A program made the translations under genes and the position numbers. This document shows, one piece after another, positions 14,234 to 52,421 of a DNA stretch of 64,000 nt; the first letter of the stretch is position 1, and each line of letters begins with the position of its first letter. This DNA comes from Scatophagus argus (Eukaryota > Chordata > Actinopteri > Scatophagidae), in assembly GCF_020382885.2 (NCBI RefSeq), contig NC_058504.1, positions 14,891,019 to 14,955,018 on the forward strand. Reading direction: 5' to 3'. Under the pieces are notes generated by a model. The model had not been told where the DNA came from, made no database searches, and worked only from the letters and a program-made list of their open reading frames with translations.

Positions 14234-17200
14234 ATGGAAGGGTCTGACAGTTTAGAGCAGAGTGGCAGTAACCAGCCAGGGTCACAGCGCAGAAGACAGC
14301 TGGACCGTCTGGGCAGGGAGGAGGCCTTCTATCAGTTTGTCAACAATCTCAGTGATGAGGACTATCGTCTTATGAGAGACAACAATCTTTTGGGCACCCC
14401 AGGTAATAAACCTTTAATTTAATTACACCAGTCTTGTGATAGTAATCTTTGACTGTGGAATTGCTGGTATTTGTATAATTTTAAGCAATTCAAGGTTCCT
14501 TAAAATATATGTTTGTCAAAAAGATGCAGCAACTGGTCCTTGTAAGTGTGTGTGACATAGGATTCCGTTCTTTTAATTTCCTTTTCTTTTTGTGTAAAAG
14601 TTTTCGTCTAACAATTAAATGCTCATTGCTATTGATTTCTATCTGTTCTCCTTTTCTATGCTTAGTCTGAGCTGTACTGAAAGACAAAAAAAGTAAACCA
14701 AAAAGAGCAAATACACATTTACAAACTTAAAACAAAATATTACTAAATTAAAACATGCTCCAGTGTTGTAAGTTGATAGATGTTCCCTGTTTTGATTATT
14801 GCACTTTTAAATACTTCTTGTGTAGAAAAGGTTCGGATAATAATGCTTATCATATTTTCTATAACACTACCCAGCCCTACAAAGAAGTGCCTCAGGATGC
14901 TTTACAGGCTTGCAGTTGCAAACTTTGCAATCATCATTTAGTTAATGAGATCAACATTTCATATTCTTATGTCCTATTGATAAATCTTTTCATGTTTCCT
15001 ACTTGCCCAATTGAATAAGAATTTATGATTAAAGTTAAGCTTAGGTAACTGCCTCTAGTTTTGGATTTGTCACTACGCTCAAAATGGAAAAACTGCGGAC
15101 TACTGAAGACGTCCAATCCGTCTCTGCCCCAGGACAGTGGCAAGGGGAATGTAAGTTTGGAGCATCCTTTAGAGGAGCACCCTGCAAAGAGAGGGCATTG
15201 AATGGACAATGGCATGCCCTGGTAAGTGTGGTGGTTTTCAGTATTGTCCTGTTGCTGTGTTCAAAGAAAATCAAACAGCTCTATGGACTAATACAGTACA
15301 AAACGACATCAGTTCTTTTTTTTAACATGTCTATTTCTACACATACACATTTCGGCAATATAGTACATGTTTTTTTTTTCTTTTTCCGCTTTAGTTCTCT
15401 ACCTGTCACATAAGTAGCTGCTACAGTGTGTCCCACTGCTGACTATGCATAAATTAGAAAATGAGTCAAGCTTTCAACTCCTCAGCCACCTGCAATGTCT
15501 TCCTTCCAGCTTACAATGATGCTCCAGAACCCTCAAGAAAGGAATGTATGGATTGTCAAAATTTGTGTGTCTTTTTTAATAATGGCCTGTTTTTATTGTT
15601 TTGTAATGTTTTGTTTTCAGGAGAGGTAACAGAGGATGAGCTGTTTAGTAGACTTCAGCAAATCAAAGATGGCCCAGAACAGCAGAATAACACCCCCAGT
15701 ACGGAAGGAGGAGAAGAACCAGTTGGTAAGTTTGCCACTTCTTATTTTTTTTCTTTGGTCAAATTCAGATATGATTTTTTTCACTTAAAAACACTGCTGT
15801 TTTCCAGAACCACCAGAAAACTCTGAGGATCCTACCAGTGGGGACAGTCTATTGGACTGGCTGAACACAGTGAGGCGCACAGGCAACACGACCAGAACTG
15901 GTCATCGTGGAAACCAGTCATGGCGGGCTGTAAGTCAGACCAACCCAAACAGTGGTGATTTTCGGTTTAGCTTGGAAATTAGTGTGAACCGCAACCTGTC
16001 TGAACAGCAGGAAGCTGCTGAAGGGGAACAGGAGGCTCCAGAAGAGGCTTCAGACATGTCTCTAGAAGGTCAAGAAGTAGTGGCAAGTGCTGATCCACCG
16101 GTGCCTTTGGAGACACAAGTAGTGGAAGAACCAGTTGTGGAGGAGCTGGCTGTCATAGTGGAACCAGATCCTGTACTAGAAGAGGTTGTTTCACAAGAGA
16201 TTTTAGGAGAACGTCCTAGCTCGCCTGCTGCCCCGCCAGTACAACCCCAACTTTCTCCTTCTCCACGCAGAGGACAAAGGAGAGCCCGCAGCCGGAGTCC
16301 AGAACCACGCAGGACCAGGGCCCGTATAGCCAGGAGCCGCTCTCCTCTCAACTTAGATCAGCTAGATGGTCTCCCTAATCCACGTCGTGTTCACAGCTCA
16401 CAAGGCCCCAACTCTGCCACCAGTAACCCCTCTGTGCCTCAAGTGGAGGGCAGTTCTCGGACTCGACAACATGTTCTTTCCAGGCAAGCTGCCACTGACA
16501 GTGATGTTCAGCCATCTATGGCAAGTGTAGAATCTGTCCCAGAGGTCCAAAATGTTGCATCTCAGGAAGGTGAAGCTGCTGCGGGGGGAGTGGGCGCTGC
16601 AGGGCGCCGTCCTCCTACTATTATGCTTGATCTCCAGGTACGTCGTGTGCGTCCAGGCGAATATCACCAAAGAGACAGCATTGCTAGTCGTACCCGCTCA
16701 CGCTCCCAGAACTCAAACAACACGTTTCGTTATGAGAGTGAACGTGGTGGATTTCGTAGAACATTTTCACGCTCTGAGCGTGCTGGTGTGAGGACCTACG
16801 TCAGCACAATTCGCATTCCTATTCGTAGAATCTCTGATGCAGGTTTGGGAGAGGCAACCTCCATGGCTCTCCAGTCTATGATTCGGCAGATTATGACCGG
16901 ATTTGGTGAACTCGGCTACCTCATGGATTCAGACTCTGATTCTTTAGATTCAAACCGCGGAGCCAACACACCTGCTGATCTGTCTGAAGCCCTCAACAAC
17001 TCAGATACTACTCCTGCTGCCACTTCTACTGCTGATGCTGATGAGCCGCCTGTGGCACCTGGGATGCTAGAAAGGACAGCTGACACTGATGTGGATGAAG
17101 GCCTCACCAGTGGTCCACCTGCCTCTGGTGGCAGGGCTCGATCTAGACCACCCATTAGCCTAGAGGAGCCCAGCTCACTGCCTTTACTGCGGCTCGCTCA

Positions 17201-17477
17201 CTTCTTCCTGCTAAACGATGATGACGAGGACCAGCCCCAAGGGCTGACCAAAGAGCAGATTGACAACCTCTCAATGCGCAACTTTGGGGAGAGTGATGCC
17301 TTGAAGACTTGCAGTGTCTGCATAACAGAGTATGCAGAAGGTAATAAGCTACGCAAGCTGCCCTGTTCTCATGAGTACCATGTACACTGCATTGATCGCT
17401 GGCTCTCCGAAAACTCCACTTGCCCCATCTGCCGCAGGGCTGTCTTAGTATCGGCCAACCGAGAGAGTGTGGTGTAG
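14234..17477 (+). CDS. rlim: E3 ubiquitin-protein ligase RLIM (RNF12)
   Basis: A nuclear RING-H2 E3 ubiquitin ligase that targets LIM-domain cofactors and REX1 in mammals. Coding exons 14234-14402, 15621-15725 and 15808-17477 join in phase to give 647 residues (human about 624). The N-terminus has the family's [12 protein letters not shown] and [15 protein letters not shown], then [17 protein letters not shown] and [14 protein letters not shown] basic Arg/Ser stretch ([11 protein letters not shown], residues about 130-160) is the usual nuclear signal region. [19 protein letters not shown] and [20 protein letters not shown] form the conserved central block. The RING-H2 finger at residues 593-635 shows CxxC, C-x-H-x2-H-x-H-x-C style ligands ([17 protein letters not shown]), and the protein ends NRESVV as in mammals. 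The start at 14234 matches the mammalian N-terminus; the frame is open slightly upstream but lacks an ATG. It lies downstream of nexmif on the same strand, as in human. Confidence 0.97.
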
Positions 17478-25359: not shown

Positions 25360-28300
25360 TCACTGCAGCTGTGAGAGAAGGGTCCTACAGTCCACGAGCC
25401 TATCCAGGTCCTCCACCACATCAATCAGCCTCTCAACCTTCTCTGAAGGAAGCACCGTCCCTGCGTTGGTCCTGAATTTCTTTCTCAGGCTCTCGTTGGT
25501 CAGCGGGTTGCGCCAGTGACCGTAGAAAGTGTCACAGCGTCCTTTCAGAATGTCGCCACTAACCAGTGTTACCTGGACTTCGCCATACATGCAGTTGAAA
25601 TTAGCCAGGTTGTCCTGGGGATGCTCGACATGAACACGGCTTAAGAGAGCAAGCAATTCGGGCCGCATCATGGCAGAGGGTGTGAAGGACTGCACAGTCA
25701 CCTCGCCATCCAGGAGAGCGGTGCAAGCATTGAACTGGAAGGAGTGGCGTGCCTCATGCTCAGAGTCAGGGAAAGGCCTGTTGATGTACTTTGATTTGGG
25801 GACTCTGAGCAGGATGCCTTGGACTTGAGCTGGGGAGACAGAGCCAGGGCCAAGCCCTACCAGAAGCTTATGGACCGAAGCTGCGGCATCTGCCACCCAG
25901 TGCATCCCCAGATGGGCTGGGAATCGCTTGAAGCCTATGTCCTGCTCCTCTAGCAAGAACATATGTCCACCATCACTGGGTGACTCTAAAGGCTGCGGCA
26001 CATAGTCTTCATAAAAAGCGCTGAAGCCAGCCACCCCATCGACAGCATCTAGGACCAGAGGACTGGCTTCTAGGCCTCTGGAAGCCAGCAGAGCAGCCTC
26101 CAGCCCCAAACGTGAGGCATTGCCAATGTGGAGGGGTTTAGACTGAGTGGCAGCATTAGCCATTGGGGCACCAGATAGAGAAGCAGCTATAGCCAAAGCA
26201 TGACCACACTGAGAGTGATCCAAAGACAAGAGACGAGCACAGGCAGCTGCACTTCCCATGGTGCCCACCACACTGGGAGGGTGAAACCTGATGACAAAGA
26301 AGACAGAAGGAAAGAGAGAGAGGGACAGGTCAGGTGTTTTGGAGTGATTCATTCTTGTGACTTCATCATTATGGCTAACACAGAGCTCCTGTGTGTCTTT
26401 ACTTGACTCTCCGCATGCAGAGACAGCTTATTTCAGGAGTGTTAAAGGGAAAAGGTTTTTAGTCATTTCAGTATTTGATAAACAAGCAAATAATGTGATG
26501 GGTGTGACTTAGTGTAAACATTTGCCAAAAGGAGTCCTGTGTGATATTTGCCTCCACATAGTTAATTGTGCTAACACTACCACAAAGCCTCTGCTGTCCC
26601 TGAGATTAACATAATAACACGTCTTTCACAGCTCATTGACACAACTAAGAGACTACACATTAACCTTACAGCCTTCCTGTAAACCACAGTGCAGAGATCA
26701 GCAGAGTCAAATATGGATTTCTTTAGACTTATGTGGATACTTGTTTTCCACATAACATACAAATAAAATGTCTTCGACAAGGAGCAGGTTTTATATGTTT
26801 TAAGTGATCACTCAGGTAGACCCAATAAATCGCAAAATCTGCAATGTTGCAAACAGCCTGTAAATGTTAACATCCAATTTTGACTTCACCTCTTTGGGAT
26901 GTTGCATGCCTCATTAGAGAACCTCATCAATCGGCCCTGGATTTCAATGCCCACGTTGAATGCCAGCAGGAGGTCCAGGCCACTAGGTTTGCTGCTAGCA
27001 GGCATCATGTCACTGAGTGCTAACACAGCTGGAAGCACTGCTCCTGAGGGATGAGTGGCAGGGTGCCATGTATCATCAAAGTCCATAGAGTGAGTCTGCA
27101 GTGAACAGGAAGAAAAGCACATTTTAACAATAAAGTGATTGCGAATAATAGTACACACTCCCTGTGTGTTGTTGCCCTTGTTGCAATGACCCAATAGCTA
27201 GCTGTAAACTTTTCTTTTTTAAAATTAACTGTAATTTAGCTCTCCACACCCGTCTGCCCTCTGGGTGAATTCGAATATGTCTTCAGTTGCCATAACATCC
27301 CTCAACCACTGGAGGTAAAAGCAGGCTGTGGAAATGAGCTTGACATCCTGATGTCTTTTTCAGGAGTGGAAGCCAAAAAATATTTGTAGACATGACACAA
27401 TGTTGGAAATTTTTGTAGAGGGGTAATGTGGGTTCAATTCAGTATTTTCATCAACCCCTTCTGTGGCTGCTCAGACGGTAACATAGTCAGAGTATAAAAA
27501 AAGCTGTAGCTATGGTATTGGGTTTAGTATGTCTGAAACTGTCCAGTGTACTGGGCCATCTGTTCCACCTATTTAAACTCACCGCCACTCCGTTGACAAA
27601 GGCAGCCAGTGTCGGGGAGAGCCTTGTGCTCTTGCGTCCATACACAGAGCTGATGTCATCAGGAGCATACATGTTCTGAAGGGGAAAAGACGGAGACAGG
27701 TAAACACTGGGTGTTTTTCAAAGGGAGACTGTCATACATTTTGCAGTCACAGATTGTGTCATAACATATAAAAAGTGAACTTTCCTTTAACAAACTGGCA
27801 TATCACTTGTCAGTTGGAAGCTGAATATGTTTCTTTGTGAGTCATATGTCAAACATAGAAATTTGAAAAAGGTCATCAGACATAAAACTCCTGCCTGTTC
27901 CCAAACTATAATAACCTGTGTTTTTTTTTTCACTCATCTTTCCACACACAGCTGTTGCACTGACTTATGAATACTGTTTGTATAAGGTCACATAATTGCT
28001 TTCATTTTATTGCCTCAAATAAGAAACCTTAGAGAAGTTAGTTTTTGTTTTCCTTTAGCCTGTTCCTCACCTGGCAGTGCTGCAGGGCCAATTCAAACAC
28101 GTCTGTTGTGCTGCCAATCAGACCGACTCCAATGCTGTCCAGCATCATTCTTTTGCTGCGGTGGAGCACCAAGGAGGACAAATGCTGAGGCTTTACTTCA
28201 CTGATGAACCTCCCATAACTGGCTGTAACTGTGTCCTCGGGGGCTAGGCGCTTTGAGACTGCAGAGGAATAGAGCAAGAATTGAGTATAAAGGAGAGTAA

Positions 28301-28720
28301 AAATGTTTAGTTAATTTGTCTACAAGTAAAAATCCTGTTTCTAACAGTTAAACCTGAGAGAAATATGTCTTTTTGTATTTAACAAGAGAACCAAATAAAG
28401 TTGAGTGTGCCAAAAGTTAAGTTTACCTTCCACTGCAGACTTGTGCAGTCCTCTGGCAGTCCATACTGGTCTAATGGTTTTCTGCAGGACAAAGAATACA
28501 AAATATATTTACTGACACTTGTAAAATAAATATTGTTATAAATACAGCTGTTTAATATCTCAAATCTTTTAAAGACTGTGAGTGATTTTCTGCCTTTTCT
28601 TTGTCAGACTTATCAAATCTGATCAAGCCTTTATCGCATTCTGAAGTATGTGAATACCTGCTAATCTAACTGATGAAAAAACATATATCTATAAATCTTT
28701 ACCTGTAATGTGGAGATCAT
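25360..28720 (-). CDS. acod1: cis-Aconitate decarboxylase (ACOD1/IRG1)
   Basis: Decarboxylates cis-aconitate from the TCA cycle to itaconate in mitochondria of activated myeloid cells; MmgE/PrpD fold. Six coding exons (28703-28720, 28427-28481, 28071-28258, 27583-27675, 26890-27095, 25360-26287) join in phase to 495 residues. HSMDFDDTWHPATHPSG (residues 120-136) places Asp123, Thr127 and His133 on the positions reported as Asp93, Thr97 and His103 in the mammalian enzyme. NAATQSKPLHIGNA carries the counterpart of His159, and FKRFPAHLGMHWVADAAAS and RPFPDSEHEARHSFQ follow; the end has DTFYGHWRNPL. Relative to mouse the N-terminus is about 30 residues longer and looks like a mitochondrial presequence (Arg/Lys/Ser, RPVWTARGLHKSA), coded by two tiny exons. 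The gene starts head to head with the transporter-YrdC fusion at 29,965, suggesting shared control. Confidence 0.96.
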
Positions 28721-29141
28721 AGCTGTAGTTTGTCTTGTTTTTCTCTTTGAAGCAGTAGGCTCGCAGTCAACAGGTTGCAAGAGATGCTGATGCTTTTTGG
28801 ATTGCAGGAGTATCTGCCTTATATAGTCCAGGACTCACAATGGCTGCTGATACTGACCTGGGAGGAACAGGGAAGCACAGCCATACATGTGACTAAATGG
28901 TATCAGGTTAGGTGGAGGAGTTTCCACAGTGGCCATCATCATCATTATTGTCATAACCAGCATCACTTTCCTCAGGAGCAGAGGAGGAAGGAGTGGTTGC
29001 TGCAACCTCTCAGGTTGCAGGATAGTGTGGGGGAATTTTCATGGACTCCTCCTACTCCCAACCTATTTATGACAAACATTCATCCCTGCTTCAGAACATC
29101 ACAGTTTATCAACAGTTCATCCGTCTGTGCGTCTTCACCAG
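28721..29141. promoter_or_regulatory. Divergent promoter of acod1 (-) and the AceTr-YrdC gene A (+)
   Basis: On the minus strand TATATAAGG (28817-28825) lies about 97 bases from the acod1 ATG. On the plus strand a TATA-like TATTTAT (29064-29070) precedes a presumed untranslated exon that ends at a strong donor, CACCAG|GTAAGA (29141). Gene A then resumes at the acceptor at 29939-29940. Between the two boxes are a 13-bp palindrome GGTTGCTGCAACC (28995-29007), resembling a C/EBP-type site, and GGGAATTTTC (29031-29040), a near match to an NF-kB site. Motif spacing is read directly; binding and shared control are inferred. Confidence 0.55.
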
Positions 29142-29964
29142 GTAAGACTTGTTTTTCTTTTGCTTCATTAATAACCTGCACGAAGACTTCATTAAATATA
29201 GCGTTTAAAATGCTACATAATGAACAGATGGTAATGACATGCTTTTAACTTTTTCTAAATATAGTCAGCTGAAAGATTCGCTGTGGCAGAGCAAATAATT
29301 ACTATTTCAAGTTATTTATGGTCTTAACTGGGAATACAACTCTGAAATATATCATGTGTCAATGAAGCATGAACATATATTAAATTACAAAAAAGCAAAA
29401 AAGCGAAATAAAAATATAAAAGATTCCTGTCTTTTGAGATAATATCAGTCTGTGGATAAAGTGTTGACTTCAGCTGACACCTGCTGCTGTGTAGTCATAG
29501 AGGAGGAAGGCTGAATACAGCTACTCTGCTGTAACTCTTGCTACTGTTGATCAGCTCACTTATCACTGGGCAAGGTCAAAGATTCTCAGGCTTCCCTGAT
29601 AATGTTTAGGGAGATAAGAAAGAAAAAAGTACGCGAGTAGAACTTGACCTAACTGAGTTTATAGGGCTTAATATTTTGTCGCATATGCTTTATGTTATAT
29701 TTATGTCACTTAAAAGTAATCTAATTTGCTTTTAGCCCTTTTTAACTTGTTTTGTACAATGCTCTGCAAATAGAAGACATTAAGGCACTTTGTTCTGTGT
29801 GGTTAGCTTCTCTGAGGTTTTTAAGAAGTCCAGTTGTGCTTTCCAACCGCAGACAACAATCACCTCTTCTGTGTAACTTAGAGGGGTGTGTATATATATA
29901 TGTTCATGAATTGTCTGTGTCATTTATTTTATTGCTTCAGTCATCTGCCAACAACAAAGACACC

Positions 29965-32900
29965 ATGACAACATTAGATGGGTTTCCAGCCAGTTTTTAT
30001 GGTGAACCAGGAGTGTTAGGAATATTATCCAACGGGATCAGTGCATTCCTTGTACTTCTACAGAACTTCAATACTGCACACACTGGCGATGCACCAGTGG
30101 GAGTGGCTAACATACTTCAAGGTATGACCTTAAGAAAATCTTTTAAAATCATATAATAAAATGCAATATGCTCATTTATAGTCATTTCAATTTCATGTTT
30201 TTTTTTTGTTTTTTTTGTTTTGTTTTTCAAATAGGTGTTCATCTGATCCTGATTGGTGGTATATGCCAGCTGGTGGCTGGCTTGCTCTCCTTTAGAAAAT
30301 ATGATCATCTGAGTGGCACTGCCTTTGTTGGCTATGCTGCTCTGTGGGGCAGTTATGGTGCCACCCGTATCTTCTTTGGTGCATTAGCCGAAACTCCTAC
30401 AACAGCACTTATGCAATATCATAATACATCAGTATCAGTAATGAACAGCTCATACTTGTCCACCAGCATGACGAGCAACATATCTTCAAATGCCACCACA
30501 GCGATCCCAGTTTGGTATTTATACCTGTCCATAAAAGAGTCGGCAATCGCTGGTCTGGTTCCCTATGTCCTCCTGTCCTTTCTCCTTGCCTTCTGCTCTG
30601 CCACAGTCAATTATATCATGCCTTTTGTCTTTGGAGCCATCACAGCCACATTAATTTTTGAAGCAGTGGCTCTGATAGCGAGTTCCTGGGCTCTTGTGAT
30701 CTCTGGGATTCTGGAGTTAGTTATCCTGATTTTTGCTATTTATGGTTCAGCTACACTGCTTGTCAAAGGTCTGACTCAACGTCTAGTCCTCAAAGGCTTC
30801 GGTACCCCTCTCTTTAATGTTCTCCTGCTAGGGACCGCCAACTCAGCAAGCGCTCAGAGCATTGGCCAAGAGAAGAAGAAAAACACAAAATATGCAGAGC
30901 CCATGGCCTTGGGTTTCTTCTGTGACACTATTGCCCCCTTTATCTTTGCATTCTACAGCTTTGGGTACATGAAGTCCTTTGCGTTAGGAGCTACATGGGT
31001 CTCAATCGTCATAGCCGCCCAACTCTTGTCCAGCTACTATGCCTATATGCGTCAAGATTGCTACCACACCACTAAGTTTGGTCTTCATGCCACATATTGG
31101 CTGATCAAGGCTTGGGATGAGTTTGTGTTATCTGCTCTGGTTGTGGAGCACAGTAACATAGCCTCAGGGAGGGAAGCAATGGTGGGAGACTGGTTCTTTG
31201 TGGCAGCAGGATTGGTGCTCTGCATAGGAAGCCTGAACACAGATGTCTTAGAATTGATCCACAACATGCTGTTTGTCCTGCTCACAGTTTCAACAGTCCC
31301 CCAGATCCCTCTCCAGGGATACTACATCTTTTTTGGTATAGCGTGCGCCTTGTTCACGGCAGTCTCCCTGTATGGTACCTTCTCACGTCTTATCAACACC
31401 ATAGCAGAGAAGTCCCTAATCCCTGTAGGTCCACAGCCCATTTCCACAGACCGGTTGAAGAACGCTTTGAGCTGCAGCAGGGCCCGGGAGGGAGACCAGG
31501 AGAAGCTCCTCCAAACTGAACAGGCTTCAGACGCCCTGTTCTACCTTTCAAATGGGGTTGCAGCTCTCTCAGCTCTTCATACAAGTTTATCCAGTTTAAA
31601 TCTTGCCTTCCTTCATCTGACGGTCCCTTGGGTCTTTATCTCTGGAACCATCATCCAGGCCTACGTCAGTCGGCTGCAAGTCACAGGAGGTGCCCGTTTT
31701 GGGTCAGTCCTCTCCTCCATTTATGTGGTGGTTTGGGCAACCTGGACCTGGTTTAGATTTGCAGGTATGTCAGTACAAACATGTTTAAATAGACACTGTT
31801 CATACTGAATTACGCAAAATGTGGATCCAGTGTGTTTCTTTTCTAGGTAAACTGCTTGAGCTTTCCACAGAGGCAGCGTATGGTTTTACAGCAGGAGCCA
31901 TTGCTTTCCTGGTCATGAATGCTTTCCTTATGTTGATTGGTAAGGTTGACAGGATTATTGTTTTATAGATGAATTCATTAATGAATTTGTTTGTGTTTAA
32001 GCTTGTTTTCATTCCTCCACTGTTTATGTCAGCTGCCTATCGGAACCTGGTTATGCTGTGTCTAACAGTGGTCATGGAGGTTGTTCTGGTCTGTTTCCTG
32101 CTTTCCACTCTGCAGCGACTGCCATATAAACTGGAAAGTAAGTGCAGACAAGCCTCATTATGAACTTTTTTTTTCAAATCTAGAAATAAACTTATATTAA
32201 AATCATATCTGTAAATGAATCCAATTAGTTATTGAAACATTGTGACAAATTTTCTCTCCAGTGGCCATGCTTGCATTACTTTCAATAATTTGCATATATG
32301 GAGTTCTGGCATCACTGGTGAACTGCATCTTTTCACAAACACTCCTTCCAATGGGCCCTCCCTTAATAAAGGTAACTGGTTAGACTCCATTTGCATTGAT
32401 CTGCCAATTCTATAATGGTCCATCATAATCCATCCTCTTCATTTCGTGAAAATTTTCCTCCCTCTGTGGCTCAGGTGCAAGTGAAGCGGGACTCTGCTGT
32501 AGAGTTACCATGTCCTGCAGTTAATTCACGACTCACCAGTAGTCTCCTGAAGATTGCTGGCCTTCTGGGGGAAGGAGGAGTGTGTGGTATTCCCACAGAC
32601 ACTGTTTATGCCCTGGCTGCATCGTGCAAGAATCCTCAAGCAATAGAGAAAATTTACAATATTAAAGTAAGAATGAAAAATAAACCAGAAATGTAATATG
32701 AAATTGATGATTAAATCTAATTTCATCACATTGTCTTTGATGACATGTTATCTTTGACATTATCCAGGACAGACCAGCAGAGAAGCCCATCTGCATTTGC
32801 ATCTCTAATGTTGAGCAGCTGGTAGCAGCAAAGCCTCCTTTCAGTCCTTTGCTTTGGGAGTTTATGAGGAATGTGTATCCAGGAGGAATCAGCTGCATTG

Positions 32901-33651
32901 TGAGCAAAGGAGACTGGCTGCTTAAACTTGGTAAATTGTACAGAGCAGCTTAAATGTAACGTTACTAGATTCTGTTTCAGCTTATTTTAAAGAAATACCA
33001 ATAATCTGTATTCACCACACCTTTATATTTATTTCATGTAGGTGTGGGACCAGCTTATGATCGTGTTGGTACCAAGGATAGCATCATGATCCGTGTGCCT
33101 GACCATACGGTGACCAGCCACCTATGTGACATCACTGGACCCCTCGCCATCACCTCAGCAAATCCCAGTGGAGAAGCAGACAGCACCCACCACAGCATGG
33201 TCATCAAGTAAGTCATCTCTTCAAGCTTCATGATTCAATTTGGAGAGATTTATACATTGTACGAATTGCACAGTGCCAAGTTGCTTGTGAGTTTCATTTG
33301 TCAGTATATAGACAATGTAAGTATATTGCTTATGGGGATCAACTACACACACATTCACTCACACACCCTGTCTTTATTGACACAGTCGACTGGGACACAA
33401 GATCCAAGGAGTTCTCTGTGATGGGGTATCAAATCAAGTTGTTGCTTCCACTGTGGTCAACTGCCTGAAAATTGATGAAGGTAAAATTCAAAACTATTCC
33501 CACTACATTCTCTCTCTTTTGTGTGTTTTAAAAGGCTCTTTCTAATTGAAAAACTCTTTTGGCAGGGACCATCACTATTGTGAGGGAAGGCTGTGTCCCT
33601 GCAGTAAAAGTCCGACAGATCTTTGACAGAGTGAAAAGCACCATGGTGTGA
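29965..33651 (+). CDS. Fusion A: three AceTr-like membrane units plus YrdC domain
   Basis: I know no characterised vertebrate protein of this kind. Exons 29965-30121, 30235-31764, 31847-31939, 32033-32137, 32262-32371, 32475-32666, 32768-32930, 33042-33207, 33386-33480 and 33566-33651 give 898 residues. Residues about 10-245, 270-455 and 483-665 are three multi-pass units resembling the acetate/succinate transporter family (SatP/YaaH, FUN34). Unit 1 has GGICQLVAGLLSFRK then GTAFVGYAALW; a helix glutamine recurs at 64, 315 and 527; units close with SLIPVGPQP and TLLPMGPPL, like SatP's terminal LPIG. Residues about 680-898 are YrdC/Sua5-like: PTDTVY (705-710), KDRPAEKP (Lys729, Arg731), PGGIS, IRVPDH, TSANPSG (Ser822, Asn824) and ASTVV. 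A loop at 115-140 has four N-glycosylation sequons, favouring the plasma membrane or secretory route over mitochondria. Expected roles: carboxylate transport and threonylcarbamoyl-AMP-type chemistry, neither proven. Confidence 0.85.
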
Positions 33652-35199: not shown

Positions 35200-36977
35200 G
35201 AATTTCCATAAATAGCTGAATGTGTGAGGAAACAAGAGATGAAACTAGTAAAATGCTCAGTGGTGTTTTGCTGGCAGTGAAACACTCCAAAATGCAGTAT
35301 GAAAATGTAACAGCTGATTGGACAGTGAATATACACATAAAATAAAAATACTGTTGTCAGAGTTTACAGTCTGCGACTCAGGGCATGAATGTCTTCTCCT
35401 CATGCTCCACAGGTTGTTAGTCACTGGGGCCAGTGTGCACAGGGCACACTGCAGTCTGATGTTCAGAGAGTATGTTTACTTCTTAAGAGAGGAAATAATG
35501 AAAAAACATTCCCAGAAAATCCACTAAATCCAGTAATACATTTGGAAGGGCCTTTATTGACAAAGAAGGAGGAAATAACAATGTTTCAAAGAGGAATGAA
35601 AGTGGTTTCACCAAAAGGAGATAGTCTTTGGTTTCATTATTGCAGCTGTTTCTTCTGGTAACACCGGACTGATCTTGATAATTACCTATCTGTGACAAAA
35701 CAAACTTGTTTTCCACATCTCTATAACCATAATCCTGACTCTCCTTTTACAACCTCAGGTTTGGCATCATGGCTGTGACCCTCTTGGTTTAAGGACCTGA
35801 CAGTGGAAACAATTATTAGATGTCACTTTAAAAAAAAAAAAAAAAAGAAGTTCAACACGACTTAATAAGACTTAGTGAAAGATGAGGGTGTAATACAACA
35901 GTATGTACATTCAGTATCCTTGAAGTTTCCTTTTTTGGAATCAGAACACAGAAACCTTTTGTTGGAAAACATCCCTGTGTCTTTCAACAAAAAGGTTCTT
36001 TGTTGAAAGACGTCAGGGTGTCTCTAACAATAAGTAAACATCCTTGTATCATCCTTTTGTTATTCTTCAAATACAGTATGACGCCATTCAGGCGTCAGGT
36101 ATCACCACTTCAGTATCTCAATGGTGTCATACATGCACTGAAAAACATATCACTGGGATTTTACATTTAAAAAAAAAAAGTCTTTTCTTGTGAGTTTCTT
36201 TTCTTAATGAGTAACTCATTACCAGGATTAGTCAGGTGCTATTGAACACACATTCGAGCATCTTATGGTTGATATGGGGACCAATAGTTTTTTCCCTTTC
36301 CAAAGGTTCACAAGGCTTCCAATGATAGAAAATTTCATATAAATAGCAACATTATAAGCAAAAATAATTTTCATGCACTTCCTGAGGGAGGATAAGGCTA
36401 AGTATAGTCATGCAGAAAATAAGATGCTCAGTGATGTTTTGGTGACAGTGCAACACACCCCACAACGCCCACAACGCAGTATTAAAATGTGAGTGCTGGT
36501 TGCACGGTCAGCATATACACAAATATTTATACATCAATTTCTTGCGGTCTTCACTCACACCGCAGACAATGTTACATACGGTACAAATATTATGTTTCTG
36601 ATACATCTTCTTTAAAGATCAGGGCGTGATACAACAATATGTACATTCGGTTTCTCACAAGTCACTGGGATTTTCCCCGTTAAAAGGGTAAATATAGGAC
36701 GGTGATGAAATAGAAGCTGCTGTTCTACTCATTACCAGTAAAGATTTAGTTGCTTGCTATTGAACACACTTTAGAGGGTCATATGGTTCATATGGTGACC
36801 TCTTCACTTCTTTACATACAAATATTTACACATCACACTGTGTTCCAATGAGGAGGTTTCTGCAAAAGTAAATAGTCTCCATAATTGTAGGTGTTTTATT
36901 AGGTAACACCCGACAGTCAGATTAGTGTTGATTTGCATTTGTGACACACCTGTTTTAAACATCTCTATGTATAACCA

Positions 36978-37210: not shown

Positions 37211-40200
37211 ATTATTAGATGTCACTTAAACAAAAAATGAAAGAAAGAAAAGTTCAACATGTTTCTCCAAGCAAGTCAGTAAAAAATGTTATTTTGAAAT
37301 TAAAGAGAGAGGAAAATGTTGACACAATATATAATTACCTTTTGTGATCTCATCATTAATGTGTTATTTAATTGCTTTAATAACAGAAATCCTCAGTCAT
37401 ATCATTTCTATACTCAATCAAAAAACTCATTCTTACAGAAAGATTTTCATCAATCGATTTGTCTATTTAAATGTGCCCACCCCATAAGAGCTTTGTTTTA
37501 CGTTGCAAATTCCTCCTGAGAATAAAATGTAAAGCAGACAGAGAAGACATTTACAGAAACATCTCTTGACCAAGAACAGCTGTGTGTTCATTTTTTGGTC
37601 TGTATTTCCTCTGGTAACTGAAGCAGCTGGTCCCACAGCCAAACTATTGCACATTTCAGATAAACAGAACAAACATTAAAGATGCAAATGAACTCATACT
37701 CCAAAAGATCCCCATTAATCCAGTCAAGGGCTTTGTGCAAATCAACAAAACAAGTGGACATGATTTCTTGCAGTCTCAGCCACACTGCAGACGATGTGGC
37801 ATAAGGAAGAAATATAATGTTTCTGATAAATCACTTTAAAACTTTTTGAAAGATGAGGGCGTAATACAACAGTACGTACATTCAGTATCCTTGAAGTTTC
37901 CTTCTTTGAAATCAGAACACGGAAAACTTTTGTTGAAAGAAAACACTTTCCTGACAATGGGATGTCTCTAACGTTAAGGAAATATCCTTGTATCTTCCTT
38001 ATGCTGTTCTTCAAAATACAGTATAACGACGTTCAGGTGTCAGGTATCGTCACTCCGGTATCTCAATGGTGTCATACCTGCACTGACAAACATATCACTG
38101 GGACTTTACCTTTTTAAAGGAAAAATCTTTTCTTGTGATGAAACAGAGGCTGCTGCTCTTAATGAGTAATTCATTACCAGGAAATAGTCAAGTACTATTG
38201 AAAACACTTTAGAGCATCTTGTGATTGATATGGTGACCAACACTTTTTTTCCTTTCCAAAGGTTCACAAGGCTTCCAATGATGGATAATCTCATATAAAT
38301 AGCAACATCATAAACAAAAATAATTTTCATGCACTTTGGGAGAGAGGTTAAGGCCGGACGGTCAGCAAAGACTTTACTTTTACTTCTTTAACTGTGCATA
38401 CAAATATTTGCACATCAAACTGTGTTCCATGGAGGAGGTTTCAGCAAAAGTAAATAGTCTTTATAATTGTAGGTGTCTCTTCAGGTAACACCCAAGACAC
38501 CCAGATTAATGTTGATTATCATCTATCTGTGACACACCTGTTTTACACGTCTCTATATATAACCATAACATACGATAAGATAAGAAAAGATAGTCCTTTA
38601 TTAGTCTAGCAGTGGAGACTTACTTTTTAAATTGTAATAATGATATGAGTGGAATTGATCAACCACTAATCAACATCTTACTCACCGCCTTAAAGTCAGT
38701 TTATCAACATTACAGACAGGGCTATGCTAATAACCTTGAAATGAATTATGTGAATTTAGATGAGAGATAATAATAGTGGACAAAGCTACCATGAAGTCAT
38801 CTTTAGGTGGGAAGACTACCATTTTGAAGCCTCAGGTTTGGCATTAGGACTGTTACAATTCTGGCTTGTTGCAGCCAGAAGTGAAGTGACAGTGGACACT
38901 AATAGTCATTAGATACCACTTTAAAAAGAAAAAAAAATCAACATGTCAACATGTTTCTCCAAGCAAGTCAGTAAACAATGTTATTTTGAACTTAAAGAGA
39001 GATGAAAACTTTGACACAATATATAATTACCTTTTGTGATCTCATCATTATGTATACTGTGTTATTTAGTTGCTTTAATAACAGAAATCCTCAGTCATAT
39101 CATTTCTATACTTAATCAAAAACTCATTCTTGTCGGAAGATTTTGGTCAATCAGTTTTTCTATTTAAATATCCTGGCACTTAAATAACTGCCCACCCCAT
39201 ATGAGCTATATCTTACAATGCAAAATTTTCCAGAAAACATTTCATTAAAGACACTTTAAGATATTTGTAAGAAGTAGTGCACTTCAAGGGATTTGACCCA
39301 GTTTTCAGTATTTATAGTCTCTGCTTACAGCATCATAGACTCATAATATACAGTGTCTTATAAATGAATATCTTTCTCTGCAAACAACACAATGTCATCA
39401 ATGTAAAACAAAAGACTACAGTTCATACCTTCAGTCAATAGGAAGAAATATGTTTCTGATACATCACTTTAAGACTTTCTGAAAGATGAAGGCATAATAC
39501 AACAGTATGTACATTTGGTATCCTTGAAGTTTCCTTCTTTGAAATCGGAACACTGAAACCCTTTGTTGAAGGAAATCAATTTCCTGACATTGGGATGTTT
39601 CTACCAATAAGGAAATATCCTTGTGTTTTCCTTGTGCTTTTCTTCAAATCCAGTATGACGCCATTCAGGTGTAAGGTGTCACCACCCAGGTGTCTCAAGG
39701 GTGTCATACCTGCACTGACAAACATATCACTGGGATTTTACCTTTTTAAAGGTGTGATGAAACAGAGGCTGCTGCTCTTAATCAGTAATTCATTACCAGG
39801 AAACATTTAGTCAGGTGATACTGAAAACACTTTAGAGCATCTTATGGTTGATATGGTAACCAACAGTTTTTTCCATTGTCACCTGCGCTGACAAACATAT
39901 CATTGAAATAATTTCGATATATAATATCGGTATATTTGTGTACCCCAAGAAAGCTACTTAGGACTCTGGACAGCATCTGCCTTTCACAGCAGGTTTTACT
40001 GTTTACTGTCTCTGTTTACTGCACAATACATTCATAATATACAGCATCTTGTAAATTAATCTCTTTCTCTGCAAACAAAACAATATCATCAACTTAGCAG
40101 AAAAGTTAATTAAAGTTCACTAAAGAAATATCTTCAGTCATTATTCTAGATCAGTTTGATTTTTTCTGTGTGTTTGGGCAAATCATTTGCACGGAGGGCA

Positions 40201-43206: not shown

Positions 43207-46200
43207 CTAAAGTTCCTCTGTGTCTCCTGAACCTCCGCCCCTTTGTGTGTGCAGATCATCCTCAAAAACAGGATTCGTCTGCCCCTGCCTGTGCCGCTTC
43301 TGAACCTCCTCGAAGATTTGAAGAACCTTCAAAGCAGACAAACAACAGTAACAGGTTTAAGTGTAAGAATACACTGTACTGAAAATCTTAATCCAGACCG
43401 AACATAATAAAGGATATATTACCTTCGATTTAGGAATGAGACCCACTCTGAAGAAACCAATATGTCCTGTTTCAATCTTAGTGCAGTCAACCACAGTAGA
43501 AGCAATGTTTTCTGGGGAGGCCCCATCACATAACACTCCATCCACCTTACCAAGCAAAATATATATGTAGTTTACTGCACAAAATAAAAACACCAAGGCT
43601 TCTTGTATTTAATTAAACTGAAATATTGAGCTCACCTTGTTGCCCAGCTTGGCATAAACTTGATTGTGGTGAGTTGTGTCTGCTTCACCTGTAGGGTTGG
43701 CGGAGGTTACAGCGATGGGTCCCACCTGCAAGAAAAACAGTTGCTATTTTACTAAAGTCATTTAGTTTCAGTCATTTTAAGACTTGCAGTGATTAATTTC
43801 TACAGCCCTTACGAGATTTATGAGATGCGTGGCCACAGAACAGTCTGGGTTTCTGATGGCTATGCTTTGTGGAGTCCCTATGTGTATGGCAGCATCTCCT
43901 AAACCAAAGGGGTCCATCCATGGGCCTATGTGAGACAAGAAACCAGTATGAGGCTAATTCAACCCCTACCATGAAAAATTAGGCACCCACATACACAGTT
44001 ACACATACAAATAAACATCCACAAATGCACACCTACCTCTGGGTATAACCATGCTAATGGAGGAGGGCCATGCAGCCTCCATGAAGTCCAGGAGGAGTGG
44101 GCTCAGGAGGTGTCTCACTGGCTCCAGCTGCTTGATGGAGGAGATCCACAGGGACATGGGTCGGTCCTGCGCCTGCTTCTTCACCCTGAAGTCATTTAGA
44201 AGGCAATTAGAGGATAATGAGAATGCATCAATGAATGGATGCAGATCATAGCACACTCACAAAAATGGAAACTTACTTGTAAGCTTTGACAACTGCGTCG
44301 GGCCTGTTGCAAGCTGCCACCAGCACATAGACAGTGTCAGTAGGCATTCCACATATGCCACCATTTTTCATGATTTCTGCAGATGAAAAAGGAGAAATGA
44401 CACTCACTTCAAGTATGTAAACAACTGTGCATTTTTCAAAATCACCATTTAATTTCTTAAAGTTCTCACCTGCAATCTGCTGGACGGACGACGACTTGCG
44501 GGCTGGTAGATGCGGACAGATATTTGCACCTCCCCCGACCCCACTCAGCTTAATTAAAGGATTTCCTAAGGGGATTTGAGGGGATTGGAAGGTGCTGTTG
44601 AAAATGTGCGCCAGGAAACAATAAAAACTGATAAGCCCAAAGATGATGGTGACTCCTATGTCGTAACCGTAAGGCAGTGCACCTACTGCATCCAGCAGGA
44701 AGCTAATAAGAATGAGCTGGAAGGTGAGGGCGTGGGCAAACCAAGCGACATTTAGAAACAGTGCCGCAGCCGTCACTAAACCATTAAATAGCATGAAGCC
44801 AATGACCCCGACAGCCACATCAAAGCTCCTGGCTTCACCATACAGTCCGCCGTATCGTGTCAGCCCCCACACTGTCCACATGACCCCATAGAGGACAAAA
44901 ACAGTGCTCTCAAAGGATTTACCTCGAGAAAAAGCTACTGAACCACAGATCAGCTGGAGTGCCCCTCCAGCCACCACCACCCAAGGCAGAACCAGCACAG
45001 ACAGAGGATTTCTGTCACTAACTGTGGCTGTGATGGCAAAAGCTGCCAGCACATTGCAGGCGTGGCCTAACACCTCTGCATCTGCATACTTGGAGTAGCC
45101 CAGGTAAGGTGCATGCAGCTCTTTATCATGGGGTCTGAGAGTAAGGCCGGGCATCCTGGTTACTAAAGTCTTGCAATATTCCTGTCCTGTGGGAATCATT
45201 GTAGGGTAGACCATATTGAATGTGGTAATTAAAAGCATGATGGCAGAGATTACAAATATAGCTCCCTGTACACCCTGCGTGCCTCCTTGGAAGAAGCCTT
45301 GAGGCTGGGCTGCAATGGCAATACAATAAGCTACAAAGAATAACACGTAGAGCCCATCCAGCAAGCTCTTCTGACAACTGAACAGAGCCAGGACAAAGAA
45401 AAGTACAGAGAAGACAACAGGGAAGGGAACAGGCGAGTAAGGCTGAATTGAGTAGAATGATAGAAAGGCACTGTAGCCCTCTGCAAATCGTAGCACAGCA
45501 CAGAAGCCATAAAATGTGGCAGCAAGTGTGTCCATGGCTCGGTAGAAGAGCACACACATTCCAACCTGGAAGACTCCAGCTGTCCACAGCCAGGGAACAT
45601 GACCAACGAACAGTCTGGGAACCACACCTAACAGAGGACAGGCTAGCACAGAGGCGGACAGCAAGTTCATCACCAGACCTACTGACACTGCAGCACTGCA
45701 CTTGTGGTCCTGCTCTGTTTTCAGCTCAGTTTTGCTCTTAAGATGTGTTCCTGGAAGCTCCACTTTACCACCAGTGATGATGAATAGCAGTCGTCCAAAC
45801 CCGAAGTAAAGACCCACCAGAGAGACAAGAAGGTAATTAGCAGCTGTGGCAGACAGACCAAAACCTGCAGCTGACAAACCCGCAATCTGATGGGCACATG
45901 CTAAGCTAATGCCAACAGCTATGAGAAAAAGAACTGGTTTCTTTACTGTCACTGCTACACTGCCTATGATGAACAGGGCTAGCGTGAATGCTGCCAGTCC
46001 TGGGACCAGAGAGGATTTCAACTCTGTGAACTCCAACACCCCCTGCCCCACCAGGATATACACCAGACCTGAGCCGCACCACAGGGCAGAGACAGTCAAA
46101 CACAGACAGGAAAACAGCAGGGCGTGGGACAGACTGCGAAGGATACCTGAGAGACAAAGAGTAAACAGAGGAGATGGACCAAAATTATTTTTTACCCACA

Positions 46201-46978
46201 AATATTACAAATTAACAAATTAAACAAAAAATGTGATATGCGTTTATCGAAACCAACCTGCATAAGCTAAGAGGGCTGCAATGATGAGGAGCAGAATTCC
46301 CAGTGCAGTACTGTGGATGAAACTTTTCTCAGGCGAGCTGGCATAGTCATTTATCAAAAGCAGTAAAGATCCTGCAAGTCAGAGGAAAACGCTATTATTT
46401 AAAGCCACCTGCTCTTAACTTGCCAACAGAAAAACTTCATGTGATTGTAGCATTTTGACTAAAAAGATTATGTGATTTTGTTCAATCCAATAGCAAGAGC
46501 AGGTGTTTCCATAAAAGACGACTAAGGGAGAAGTTTTATTTATTTATTTTTTTTCAGAACTTGCTGTTACCATCATATTTTTTTTTAATGTTTGCACCAA
46601 AATACAGGAGGTTGTTACCATGTCTGTGGAGATTCTCAGTCATCCAGGTCATATTCACTCAAAGAATTAAAGCAAGGCGTCTGGACTTGTGAAGATTGAC
46701 TTGATTAACTTGACTTCAAGTCAATCTTCAAATCAATCTTCAATTCAAATCTTCACAAGTCCAGACGCCTTGCTTTAATTCTTTGAGTAGGAGGTTGTTA
46801 CTTTATTTTTAAATATACGGCACTGGCCCATACGAGATTCACGCTAAAACTGATAAAACATCAGTCATAAAGTACAAAGGGACATCATGAAAATAAAAAA
46901 TAAAAAAATAATAAAAATCTTACCGCCGGAGATGCCCAGTATGCCGACGGACACATGCAGAGAGCCGAGTTGAGCCAT
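43207..46978 (-). CDS. Fusion B: diverged paralogue, AceTr-like units plus YrdC-like domain
   Basis: Exons 46924-46978, 46258-46371, 44470-46146, 44277-44376, 44037-44185, 43813-43925, 43636-43725, 43423-43545 and 43207-43326 give 846 residues. Membrane units span about 1-200, 225-420 and 425-600. The last one keeps the family pattern best: GGALQLICGSVAFSRGKSFE, then YGVMWTVWG, closing PQIPLGNPL. The glutamine of this helix is present in units 2 and 3 but I do not see it in unit 1. The YrdC-like part (about 616-846) has PTDTVY (627-632) and TSANPTGEAD (Ser744, Asn746). Aligned without gaps to copy A, KDRPAEKP reads KKQAQDRP, so the Arg of the KxR pair is Gln653; PGG is PSS. It may be inactive in adenylate chemistry or altered in substrate. 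It shares its 5' flank with the ES1-like gene. Start chosen because MAQLGSLH is the first Met of the open first exon. Confidence 0.82.
46658..46787. repeat. Long perfect inverted repeat in intron 1 of fusion B
   Basis: A 37-base arm at 46658-46694 (starting CTCAAAGAATTAAAGC) is matched perfectly in reverse complement at 46751-46787, with a 56-base spacer that itself contains shorter imperfect complements. Transcribed, it would form a strong hairpin. The sequence before it, 'cagtcatccaggtcat', resembles the start of the repeat at 49,562. Confidence 0.9.
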
Positions 46979-50953: not shown

Positions 50954-52421
50954 TCATGTGGTTTTGTTAGAGAAATGATTGAAGCGATCCGTTCCAAAGG
51001 CCAGAGTTGTAGCATGAAATTTCCTGGGACGATTAGGATCCTACAGACAACAGAAAGAATCAGAATCAATAAATGGTATTACACAGTGAACTTGCATGAT
51101 ATAAAGGAATACATCAATATTCAGGCTTGTCTGACCTGGATGGGATATGCACAGGTGGGAACATAACGGATCACAAACCCACAGCGCCTCCTCTGGGATG
51201 TGTTGGCATCGCTGGCATGGACGAGGAGTCCATCATGTATCTGCCAAAACAAATCCAAAATGAATTCATCATGTATTGCACTCAGTAACAATTATTTAAA
51301 AAAAAATGAATAAACTCACAGACATCTGCCCAGCTAACAGAGGGCAAAGCAATGCCTTGTCAGTCTCTATCAGCTCTTCTGGTATCTCCTGGTTGACTGA
51401 CAGCATGTTTCCAGGGCGACTTGCTTGGCGATGGGGCAACATGCCAGCGCAGTGGCTACCTACGAGACAAAAAAAAAAAAAAAGCAGCACACTTCAGAGA
51501 CCCTCGTCTGCTCCTCTAAAAGGTCAAACAACATGCGTCAAGGGAAGCTTTTCATGGAGACGTGTCTGCTTTTATTTAGCTGAGGATCAAACATTGCAGT
51601 TGCTAAATGCACAAATTCACCCGAGAGCCATAAATGAGTAGCTGAGGTACCTGGGATGACCTGAAGGGCGCCGTTCTCCTTCACTGAGTCATCTAATGCG
51701 AGCCACACAGAGAGAACAGGACCACCAGCAATGCCCCAATATCTGCGAATAAAACTACTACAGTTAGACAAACTGAAACAAAGCAAAACAAAACCTTCCA
51801 GCGTTTTTAATATTTTCTTCAGTGTTTGAATCAACCTCATATCTTGATGCCAGGCCACATATGGGACTTCATTCTCTCCAGCATTCCCATCAGGTTTGAG
51901 TGTTGGGTATTTACAGATGAAACGGGAGTCCAGCAGGATGACGTCAGGGCCCAAGATGGCTTTGACCACTTTTAAGATTTGAGGGTGTTTGGTCAGGTCC
52001 CTCACCCACGGATACTGAAGGTGAACACAGTGGAGGCTGTACTGGGTGTACTCTTGACCTGGAAACATACAAACACACAATATACCCATTTAATGACAAC
52101 TTGTGCTCGGTTATTTCATTTTCAAACATTAATTTTGAGGAGCACAATAACAGACAAGCACGAAACCCCAGTCCTGGGATCCCAGTATTATTATTTTCAC
52201 TTACTTCTGCATGCTTTCTCTTTTTCCTGACTAACTTGCCCTCTTCATCCCTCTCCTTGCTCATGCTCCTTCATCTTCCACTGGTACTTACCAAATTCCC
52301 TCTCCAGCTCAGAAAAGGCATGCTTGGCCTCCCTCAGCTCTGTGTCTGTCAACACAGGCAGTGCTGAGAGGAAGCCTTGTTGGTTGTAGATCTCCTGCAG
52401 TTTAGCCTCAGATGTAGTCAT
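50954..52421 (-). CDS. PhyH-family Fe(II)/2-oxoglutarate dioxygenase
   Basis: A member of the phytanoyl-CoA dioxygenase superfamily; substrate unknown. Exons 52292-52421, 51836-52058 (3' edge uncertain by one base), 51651-51742, 51320-51459, 51136-51240 and 50954-51040 give 258 residues. The facial triad is visible: WHQD (His114, Asp116) and the distal His in GLLVHASDANTS, followed by RRRCGFVIRYVPT, where an Arg would bind 2-oxoglutarate. VWLALDDSVKENGALQVIPG is the standard core. It does not look like human PHYH or PHYHD1; the WHQDxRYW plus RYVPT pattern is closer to short bacterial-type members, which databases often label hypophosphite-dioxygenase-like. No signal or peroxisomal (SKL-type) end is seen; it ends NKTT. 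It is tail to tail with the ES1-like gene. Confidence 0.88.

What the first reader, a model, noticed from the sequence alone, without database searches (positions are those of the whole stretch)
29965..33651. Vertebrate fusion of three acetate/succinate-transporter-like units to a YrdC domain
Seen: one ten-exon gene, phases closing perfectly, joins about 665 residues of multi-pass membrane protein to a full YrdC/Sua5-like domain. Pattern matching shows the membrane part is three repeats, each with the family's helix glutamine (Gln64, 315, 527) and each closing with a SatP-like end (SLIPVGPQP, TLLPMGPPL; weaker in unit 1). Known: AceTr (GPR1/FUN34/YaaH) proteins carry acetate and succinate in microbes and I know of none described in mammals; YrdC makes threonylcarbamoyl-AMP for tRNA t6A from Thr, bicarbonate and ATP. 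Inferred: a membrane transporter coupled to, or gated by, carboxylate/adenylate sensing.
Basis: partly seen in the sequence, partly recalled or inferred. Interest (0 to 1): 0.88.

Follow-up and report, generated by a model that had tools for sequence, protein, structure and literature searches.

The report
Channel-YrdC fusion beside itaconate-synthase-like gene
A fish gene really does join three copies of a microbial acetate-channel fold to a tRNA-modification enzyme domain; that fusion was described in print in June 2026, but its place beside a fish gene that probably makes itaconate points to a testable job in the antibacterial itaconate response.

Summary

New here: (1) head-to-head with .3 lies irg1l, an itaconate-synthase homologue. 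In 35 of 42 fish .3 and irg1l share a contig length; 7 of 10 with comparable tags number them consecutively. (2) Zebrafish irg1l.3.4 and .5 change together. (3) .3 keeps the KxR/SxN active site (120/120).4 lacks its arginine (0/120). (4) The gate phenylalanine is Asn/Asp in all three .3 units. (5) Topology puts YrdC in the cytosol. Best reading: an infection-induced carboxylate, probably itaconate, channel.

The parts
29965..33651 (+). si:ch211-153b23.3: 10 coding exons (29965-30121, 30235-31764, 31847-31939, 32033-32137, 32262-32371, 32475-32666, 32768-32930, 33042-33207, 33386-33480, 33566-33651), 898 aa
   Evidence: splice model; 100% identity to P0001
29965..30800 (+). AceTr-like unit 1 (about residues 8-240; helices 1-6, glycosylation-rich loop 103-151)
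   Evidence: PF01184; helices; sequons
30861..31472 (+). AceTr-like unit 2 (about residues 262-465; helices 7-12)
   Evidence: hhalign to unit 3 E 1.1e-7; helices
31500..32371 (+). AceTr-like unit 3 (about residues 475-665, exons 2-5; helices 13-18)
32475..33651 (+). YrdC/Sua5 domain (residues 666-898, exons 6-10), complete KxR/SxN tetrad K729, R731, S822, N824
43207..46978 (-). si:ch211-153b23.4: 9 coding exons (46978-46924, 46371-46258, 46146-44470, 44376-44277, 44185-44037, 43925-43813, 43725-43636, 43545-43423, 43326-43207), 846 aa, same architecture, degenerate YrdC. The public record (875 aa) starts 29 codons upstream, at 47065, also open in this window
25360..28720 (-). irg1l (cis-aconitate decarboxylase-like): exons 28720-28703, 28481-28427, 28258-28071, 27675-27583, 27095-26890, 26287-25360, 495 aa
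   Evidence: splice model; solved cis-aconitate decarboxylases E 2.5e-163; many fish relatives named 'immunoresponsive gene 1, like'
28721..29141 (.). presumed shared divergent promoter block between irg1l (-) and .3 (+), ending in a presumed untranslated first exon of .3 with a GT donor at 29142
   Evidence: sequence; no transcript evidence from this species

Best explanation
The gene encodes an 18-helix membrane protein made of three SatP/AceTr-like six-helix units followed by a cytosolic YrdC (threonylcarbamoyl-AMP synthase-like) domain. Together with its paralogue .4 it belongs to an inducible gene cluster with irg1l, an itaconate-synthase homologue. Most likely mechanism: two chains form a SatP-like ring of six units (the dimer idea is from PMC13316224) that conducts carboxylates across a glycosylated secretory-pathway membrane (plasma membrane or phagosome), with itaconate or a related C4-C5 dicarboxylate as the intended cargo; replacement of the gate phenylalanine by Asn/Asp makes the constriction wider and more polar. 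The YrdC domain of .3 binds ATP, threonine and bicarbonate and either makes TC-AMP locally or gates the pore; that of .4 has lost the ATP-site arginine and is probably structural or regulatory. Shown: anatomy, homology, gene neighbourhood, active-site pattern. Computed but indirect: topology, fold, co-expression. Inferred: transport, cargo, coupling.
For: Fold and homology. Neighbourhood: irg1l is the adjacent head-to-head gene. In 35 of 42 species seen in both lists.3 and irg1l have the same longest-contig length, including gar, bowfin and sturgeon; in arowana (Scleropages) that contig is only 25,743 bases. Locus tags are consecutive (in three species in steps of ten) in 7 of 10 species with comparable tags: Channa striata, Mugilogobius, Prochilodus, Acnodon, Zoarces, Albula, Aldrovandia. 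Co-regulation in zebrafish: irg1l.4 and .5 listed together in a Shigella sonnei infection figure; irg1l.3 and .5 are 3 of 5 hub genes of one module; irg1l.4 and .5 are 3 of the 5 up-genes listed for one PFOS dose; across 18 contrasts, correlation with irg1l is 0.90 (.4), 0.88 (.3), 0.86 (.5), median -0.07 over 54 rows. Gate: the Phe position is N23 (111/112), D283 (119/119), N492 (119/119); in yeast Ato1, Phe98Ala and Leu219Ala admit succinate (PMC13316224 passage). Topology of .3: more K+R inside than outside in 120/120; N-glycosylation sequons in the helix 3-4 loop of 118/120, 372 against 143 in shuffles (maximum 169). Indirect: mutants of the separate zebrafish gene acod1 (not irg1l) are more susceptible to Shigella flexneri (PMC10846535 passages).
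Against: No transport data exist, and itaconate production by the irg1l product was not tested here. Co-expression is not specific: sult5a1 (0.91) and si:ch211-207n23.2 (0.90) track irg1l as well, and neighbours with a shared promoter can be co-induced without shared function. In 7 of 42 species the contig lengths differ (four salmonids, eel, turbot, Tachysurus), and in Amia and Astyanax .4 lies on a contig of another length. Tags were not consecutive in Siganus, Danionella and Coregonus suidteri. Mammals make itaconate without these genes and can carry it by MCT1/MCT4 (PMC12658120 abstract). Engineered AceTr proteins prefer monovalent succinate (PMC9409672 passages), a minority form of a dicarboxylate at cytosolic pH. 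The acidic D283 in unit 2 could repel anions. Sequons also occur in loops assigned inside (36, 11 and 4 of 120 sequences in three loops), and .4 has no sequon-rich loop (at most 6 of 120 in any), so the glycosylation argument holds for .3 only. Two papers naming these genes do not list irg1l (PMC11489432.3 not significant; PMC7083608, stickleback methylation).
Confidence: 0.42

Rival explanations
1. A general short-chain monocarboxylate channel (acetate, lactate, propionate) of epithelia and immune cells. The irg1l neighbourhood reflects shared inflammatory regulation, not itaconate as cargo.
For: Characterised family members in the passages read mostly carry acetate and other monocarboxylates (PMC13316224); co-expression also includes genes not known to belong to the cluster.
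Confidence: 0.3
2. Transceptor: the units no longer conduct well; carboxylate binding in the membrane part controls the YrdC domain (or ATP/threonine binding in YrdC gates the pore). This is.
For: YrdC predicted cytosolic and directly after the last helix; complete active site in .3; acidic D283 and histidine H337 at pore positions of unit 2.
Against: All three units keep the family's glutamine and units 1 and 3 the gate tyrosine, as expected of working pores.4 lacks the ATP-site arginine, so it could not be switched in the same way.
Confidence: 0.14
3. Substrate-feeding t6A factory: the membrane part brings in or concentrates bicarbonate or another anion for local TC-AMP synthesis; ACOD1-type decarboxylation releases CO2 nearby.
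For: All seven Sua5 active-site positions named in PMC10321239 (passage) are kept in .3, mapped through the alignment: T706 119/119, K729, R731, S822, N824, S860 120/120, R877 114/114 sequences with a letter there.
Against: NCBIfam's TC-AMP synthase model TIGR00057 falls short of its cut-off (116.5 of 123.2 bits).4 lacks the arginine in 120/120. That fish also have an ordinary Yrdc gene is recalled, not tested.
Confidence: 0.1
4. Gene-prediction artefact joining two genes.
For: The membrane part and YrdC are on separate exons (5 and 6).
Against: Long relatives across ray-finned fish; 5 of 5 lgn rows for .3 cover the whole query on 2.8-3.2 kb contigs; independent paper.
Confidence: 0.01

Closest known systems
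Vertebrate Ato-Sua5 fusion family (PMC13316224, iScience June 2026)
   Same: About 900 aa, three Gpr1/Fun34/YaaH units plus C-terminal Sua5/YciO/YrdC; two clades there, two paralogues .3 and .4 here (that they are the same two was not tested); SatP-like fold.
   Different: That paper's main text has no mention of itaconate, aconitate, irg1 or zebrafish and calls the mechanistic implications unclear. In the passages read I saw no mention of gene neighbourhood, loss of the KxR arginine in one paralogue, polar gate or glycosylated loop; its supplements were not seen.
SatP / AceTr / Ato acetate-succinate channels (PF01184; PDB 5ys3, 5zug)
   Different: Three units in one chain; NPAPLGL motif reduced to P-L-G matches; gate Phe replaced by Asn/Asp; fused enzyme domain.
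Sua5/TsaC/YRDC threonylcarbamoyl-AMP synthases (PF01300, TIGR00057)
   Different: Membrane-tethered; protein ends after the TsaC-like domain, with no room for a SUA5 domain; .4 lacks the tetrad's arginine.
Mammalian itaconate transporters MCT1/MCT4 (PMC12658120, abstract)
   Same: Proposed shared cargo and infection context.
   Different: Another transporter family, MFS fold (recalled).

Membership tests
AceTr (GPR1/FUN34/YaaH, PF01184) | profile match above Pfam's curated cut-off | tested here: met
   Unit 1: 28.1 bits in the whole protein, 31.5 alone (cut-off 25); sturgeon unit 1 27.7 over profile 17-192 of 207. .4 unit 3 24.3-24.9, just under. Units 2 and 3 of .3: no hit.
AceTr (GPR1/FUN34/YaaH, PF01184) | NCBIfam equivalog cut-off for acetate uptake transporters (AceTr_1, PRK10659) | tested here: not met
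   21.7 of 50 bits and 20 of 297 bits, both in unit 1
AceTr (GPR1/FUN34/YaaH, PF01184) | six-helix SatP fold in each unit | tested here: inconclusive
AceTr (GPR1/FUN34/YaaH, PF01184) | NPAPLGL signature at the start of helix 1 | tested here: not met
   Unit 1 EPGVLGI, unit 2 EPMALGF: only P, L, G match. So not an ordinary AceTr member but a diverged branch.
AceTr (GPR1/FUN34/YaaH, PF01184) | FLY constriction | tested here: not met
   Phe replaced by N23/D283/N492; Tyr kept in units 1 and 3 (Y86, Y549), His337 in unit 2; Leu position I188 in unit 1, L604 in unit 3; unit 2's Leu position was not assigned. The SatP Phe position rests on recalled SatP numbering.
AceTr (GPR1/FUN34/YaaH, PF01184) | carboxylate transport | not testable with these tools
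   needs flux assays
Sua5/TsaC (TC-AMP synthase) | KxR/SxN tetrad | tested here: met
   .3: K729, R731, S822, N824 in 120/120; tetrad as defined in PMC10321239 and PMC3223725 (passages).
Sua5/TsaC (TC-AMP synthase) | KxR/SxN tetrad in the paralogue .4 | tested here: not met
   Arg position is Q in 113, H in 4, K, A and E in one each of 120; no R; K680, S773 and N775 kept in 120/120.
Sua5/TsaC (TC-AMP synthase) | curated equivalog cut-off TIGR00057 | tested here: not met
   .3: 116.5 of 123.2 bits
Vertebrate Ato-Sua5 fusions (PMC13316224) | three Gpr1/Fun34/YaaH units + C-terminal YrdC, about 900 aa, vertebrate | tested here: met
   paper passages
cis-aconitate decarboxylase (neighbour irg1l) | full-length similarity to solved ACOD1 with the same active-site segments | tested here: met
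   E 2.5e-163 over residues 34-491; DDTWHPATHPS, KRFHPPSVVGT and KPLHIGNA segments identical in the alignment; that these are the active-site segments is recalled
cis-aconitate decarboxylase (neighbour irg1l) | itaconate production | not testable with these tools
   needs an enzyme assay

The most novel reading that the evidence does not exclude
Non-mammalian vertebrates possess a dedicated, infection-induced itaconate channel: the two Ato-YrdC fusions, linked to the itaconate-synthase-like gene since before the split of sturgeons from other ray-finned fish, form a heteromeric six-unit ring (.3 with a working nucleotide/threonine domain, .4 with a disabled one) that delivers itaconate across the plasma or phagosomal membrane under control of ATP and threonine. 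Mammals lost it and rely on general carriers.
Probability: 0.3. Interest if true: 0.85.

Novelty: already known. Interest (0 to 1): 0.6.

Why it matters
The fusion itself was published in June 2026 with its function left open. Linking it to the itaconate-synthase-like gene by conserved neighbourhood and shared expression turns 'why is a bacterial-type acetate channel fused to a tRNA-modification enzyme in fish?' into a concrete, cheap experiment in zebrafish, and offers a candidate itaconate route that mammals lack.

Tried and rejected
Artefact of joining two genes: rejected (5 of 5 lgn rows, long relatives, published family). Mitochondrial location, suggested by names such as 'YrdC domain-containing protein, mitochondrial': disfavoured for .3 by sequons in 118/120 and by topology, not excluded. 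NF-kB, AP-1, ISRE and STAT consensus sites in the 421-base promoter block: none found with the consensus strings used; one palindromic C/EBP-like TTGCTGCAA at 28997, no weight given. Rfam at gathering scores: no match in the window. The .4 structure model is poor (pLDDT 48.2); only its helix count and SatP match are used, with that caveat. Sequence links of .4 units 1 and 2 to the other units by hhalign: not found (probability at most 21%). The identity of zebrafish .5 could not be settled. Papers: passages were read of PMC13316224, PMC9409672, PMC6980646, PMC11140123, PMC7083608, PMC8877790 (plus part 1 of 2 of its table section), PMC9228135, PMC11489432, PMC10846535, PMC9654439, PMC10321239 and PMC3223725; abstract and outline of PMC12658120; no paper was read whole. 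That the irg1l link is not in print rests only on (no paper; PMC6980646, which lists both without linking them in the passage seen; no mention in PMC13316224; one tumour review holding both words, listing seen only).

Counts: 55 rows of the table part seen were used (54 besides irg1l); tfr1b (17 values), hbbe1.2 and fkbp5 (ND) were dropped, and part 2 of that section was not read. In one search species were typed from the listed rows that bear a species name and a contig length; the .4 list was typed only in part (40 species), and Dissostichus mawsoni, present in the .3 and .4 lists with different contig lengths, was left out. The two Toxics papers may come from one group.

Full report
WHAT IS THERE. 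The finding's coordinates, exon number and phases are right. Joining ten GT-AG exons between 29,965 and 33,651 gives 898 codons and a stop. The product is identical over its whole length to a Scatophagus argus protein called si:ch211-153b23.3 (P0001), so the window is from spotted scat. The other listed relatives (120 of 304 hits are listed) run from perciforms to gar, bowfin and sturgeon at 66-87% identity; 112 of the 120 are 800 aa or longer. Five rows come from contigs of 2.8-3.2 kb that cover the entire query although the scat gene spans 3.7 kb; these look like transcripts, so the two halves are one message.

THE NEIGHBOUR. Head-to-head with .3 lies irg1l (28,720-25,360, 495 aa), clearly of the cis-aconitate decarboxylase family by comparison with solved enzymes (E 2.5e-163). 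The two start codons are 1,245 bases apart. Using contig lengths printed by the protein searches.3 and irg1l share a contig length in 35 of 42 species.3 and .4 in 36 of 40 typed species, all three in 19 of 23. Consecutive locus tags in seven of ten species and a 25.7-kb arowana contig holding both genes show close linkage in osteoglossomorphs, elopomorphs, ostariophysans and acanthomorphs (group names recalled). Of the seven species where .3 and irg1l differ, four are salmonids; in Amia and Astyanax it is .4 that lies elsewhere.

EXPRESSION. Six library papers name genes of this zebrafish clone; four of them also list irg1l. They appear together in a Shigella sonnei infection figure, as three of five hub genes of one module, among the five up-genes listed for one PFOS dose, and in a table of 18 contrasts where .3.4 and .5 correlate with irg1l at 0.88, 0.90 and 0.86 against a median of -0.07 for 54 rows. 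Two other genes correlate as well (sult5a1 0.91, si:ch211-207n23.2 0.90), so this supports shared control, not shared function. The other two papers do not show the link.

ACTIVE SITE. The tetrad K56xR58/S143xN145 and T33/S181/R195 of Pyrococcus Sua5 (PMC10321239 passage) map through the alignment to K729, R731, S822, N824, T706, S860 and R877 of .3. In the 120 listed .3 proteins none of these changes where a letter is present (T706 119, R877 114, the rest 120). In the 120 listed .4 proteins six of the seven are likewise kept, but the arginine is Gln in 113, His in 4 and Lys, Ala or Glu in one each, never Arg. So the .3 domain is probably catalytic or at least nucleotide-binding, and the .4 domain probably not.

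PORE. In SatP and Ato proteins the narrowest point is the FLY element; loosening it admits succinate (passages). In .3 the Phe position is Asn, Asp, Asn in units 1, 2, 3 (111/112, 119/119, 119/119), Tyr is kept in units 1 and 3 but His in unit 2, Leu is Ile in unit 1 and Leu in unit 3 (unit 2 not assigned). In .4 unit 3 the Phe position is Ser (86) or Asn (31 of 120), and the Leu position is Tyr in 117 of 120. The signature NPAPLGL is reduced. This is a shift to a wider, polar gate, compatible with dicarboxylates; transport itself is untested, and the Phe assignment rests on recalled SatP numbering.

TOPOLOGY. With the N-terminus inside, K+R are commoner in inside loops in 120 of 120 .3 proteins, and the helix 3-4 loop carries N-glycosylation sequons in 118 of 120, 372 in all against a shuffled mean of 143 and maximum of 169. 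Sequons also occur in three inside loops (36, 11 and 4 of 120), and .4 shows the same charge bias (17.7 against 3.4 on average) but no sequon-rich loop. This points to the secretory pathway for .3, with YrdC in the cytosol.

MECHANISM. I take the most likely function to be an infection-induced carboxylate channel working with irg1l, itaconate the leading candidate cargo (0.42). The ring-of-six dimer is the published hypothesis. Shown: genes, domains, linkage, residues. Inferred: flux, cargo, coupling.

KNOWN OR NEW. PMC13316224 (iScience, 22 June 2026; passages read) already reports the triplicated Ato domain fused to Sua5/YrdC in vertebrates other than mammals, two clades, and the SatP superposition. 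An NCBI record already names one such protein 'grp1_Fun34_YaaH and SUA5 domain-containing protein' (P0157). So the object of this finding is already known. The itaconate link, the .3/.4 active-site split, the polar gate and the glycosylated loop were not seen in the passages I read; searches pairing YrdC with acod1, irg1 or itaconate found no paper that links them as far as the listings and passages show.

Noticed in passing
window 43207-46978 (-): Second triple-AceTr-YrdC gene (.4), not mentioned in the finding; its YrdC lacks the KxR arginine in all 120 listed relatives.
   Followed up: yes
window 25360-28720 (-): irg1l, cis-aconitate decarboxylase-like, head-to-head with .3.
   Followed up: yes
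window 44732-44734 (-), residue 557 in P0122 numbering: Scat .4 has His where 117 of 120 listed relatives have Tyr, at the position aligned with the SatP gate leucine in unit 3.
   Followed up: no
window 51541-52089 (-): Part of a phytanoyl-CoA dioxygenase (PhyH) gene (PF05721 E 5e-10). A zebrafish PhyH-like gene, zgc:174917, stands in the same Shigella figure list as irg1l and .4; whether it is the same gene is unknown.
   Followed up: no
window 15789-17474 (+): Large open frame with a RING-H2 finger (PF13639 E 7.5e-14); looks like an RLIM/RNF6-type ubiquitin ligase (recalled).
   Followed up: no
window 2806-7242 (+): 1,479-codon open frame with DUF4683 (PF15735 E 6.8e-73).
   Followed up: no
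window 35886-36170, 37857-38117, 39490-39807 (+): Three similar open frames (..LEVSFFxIxTxKxFV..) between the two fusion genes, probably copies of a dispersed repeat.
   Followed up: no
Amia ocellicauda rows P0097, P0227, P0352: In bowfin .3 and irg1l share a contig length but .4 is on a contig of another length, so the three-gene cluster is not universal.
   Followed up: partly
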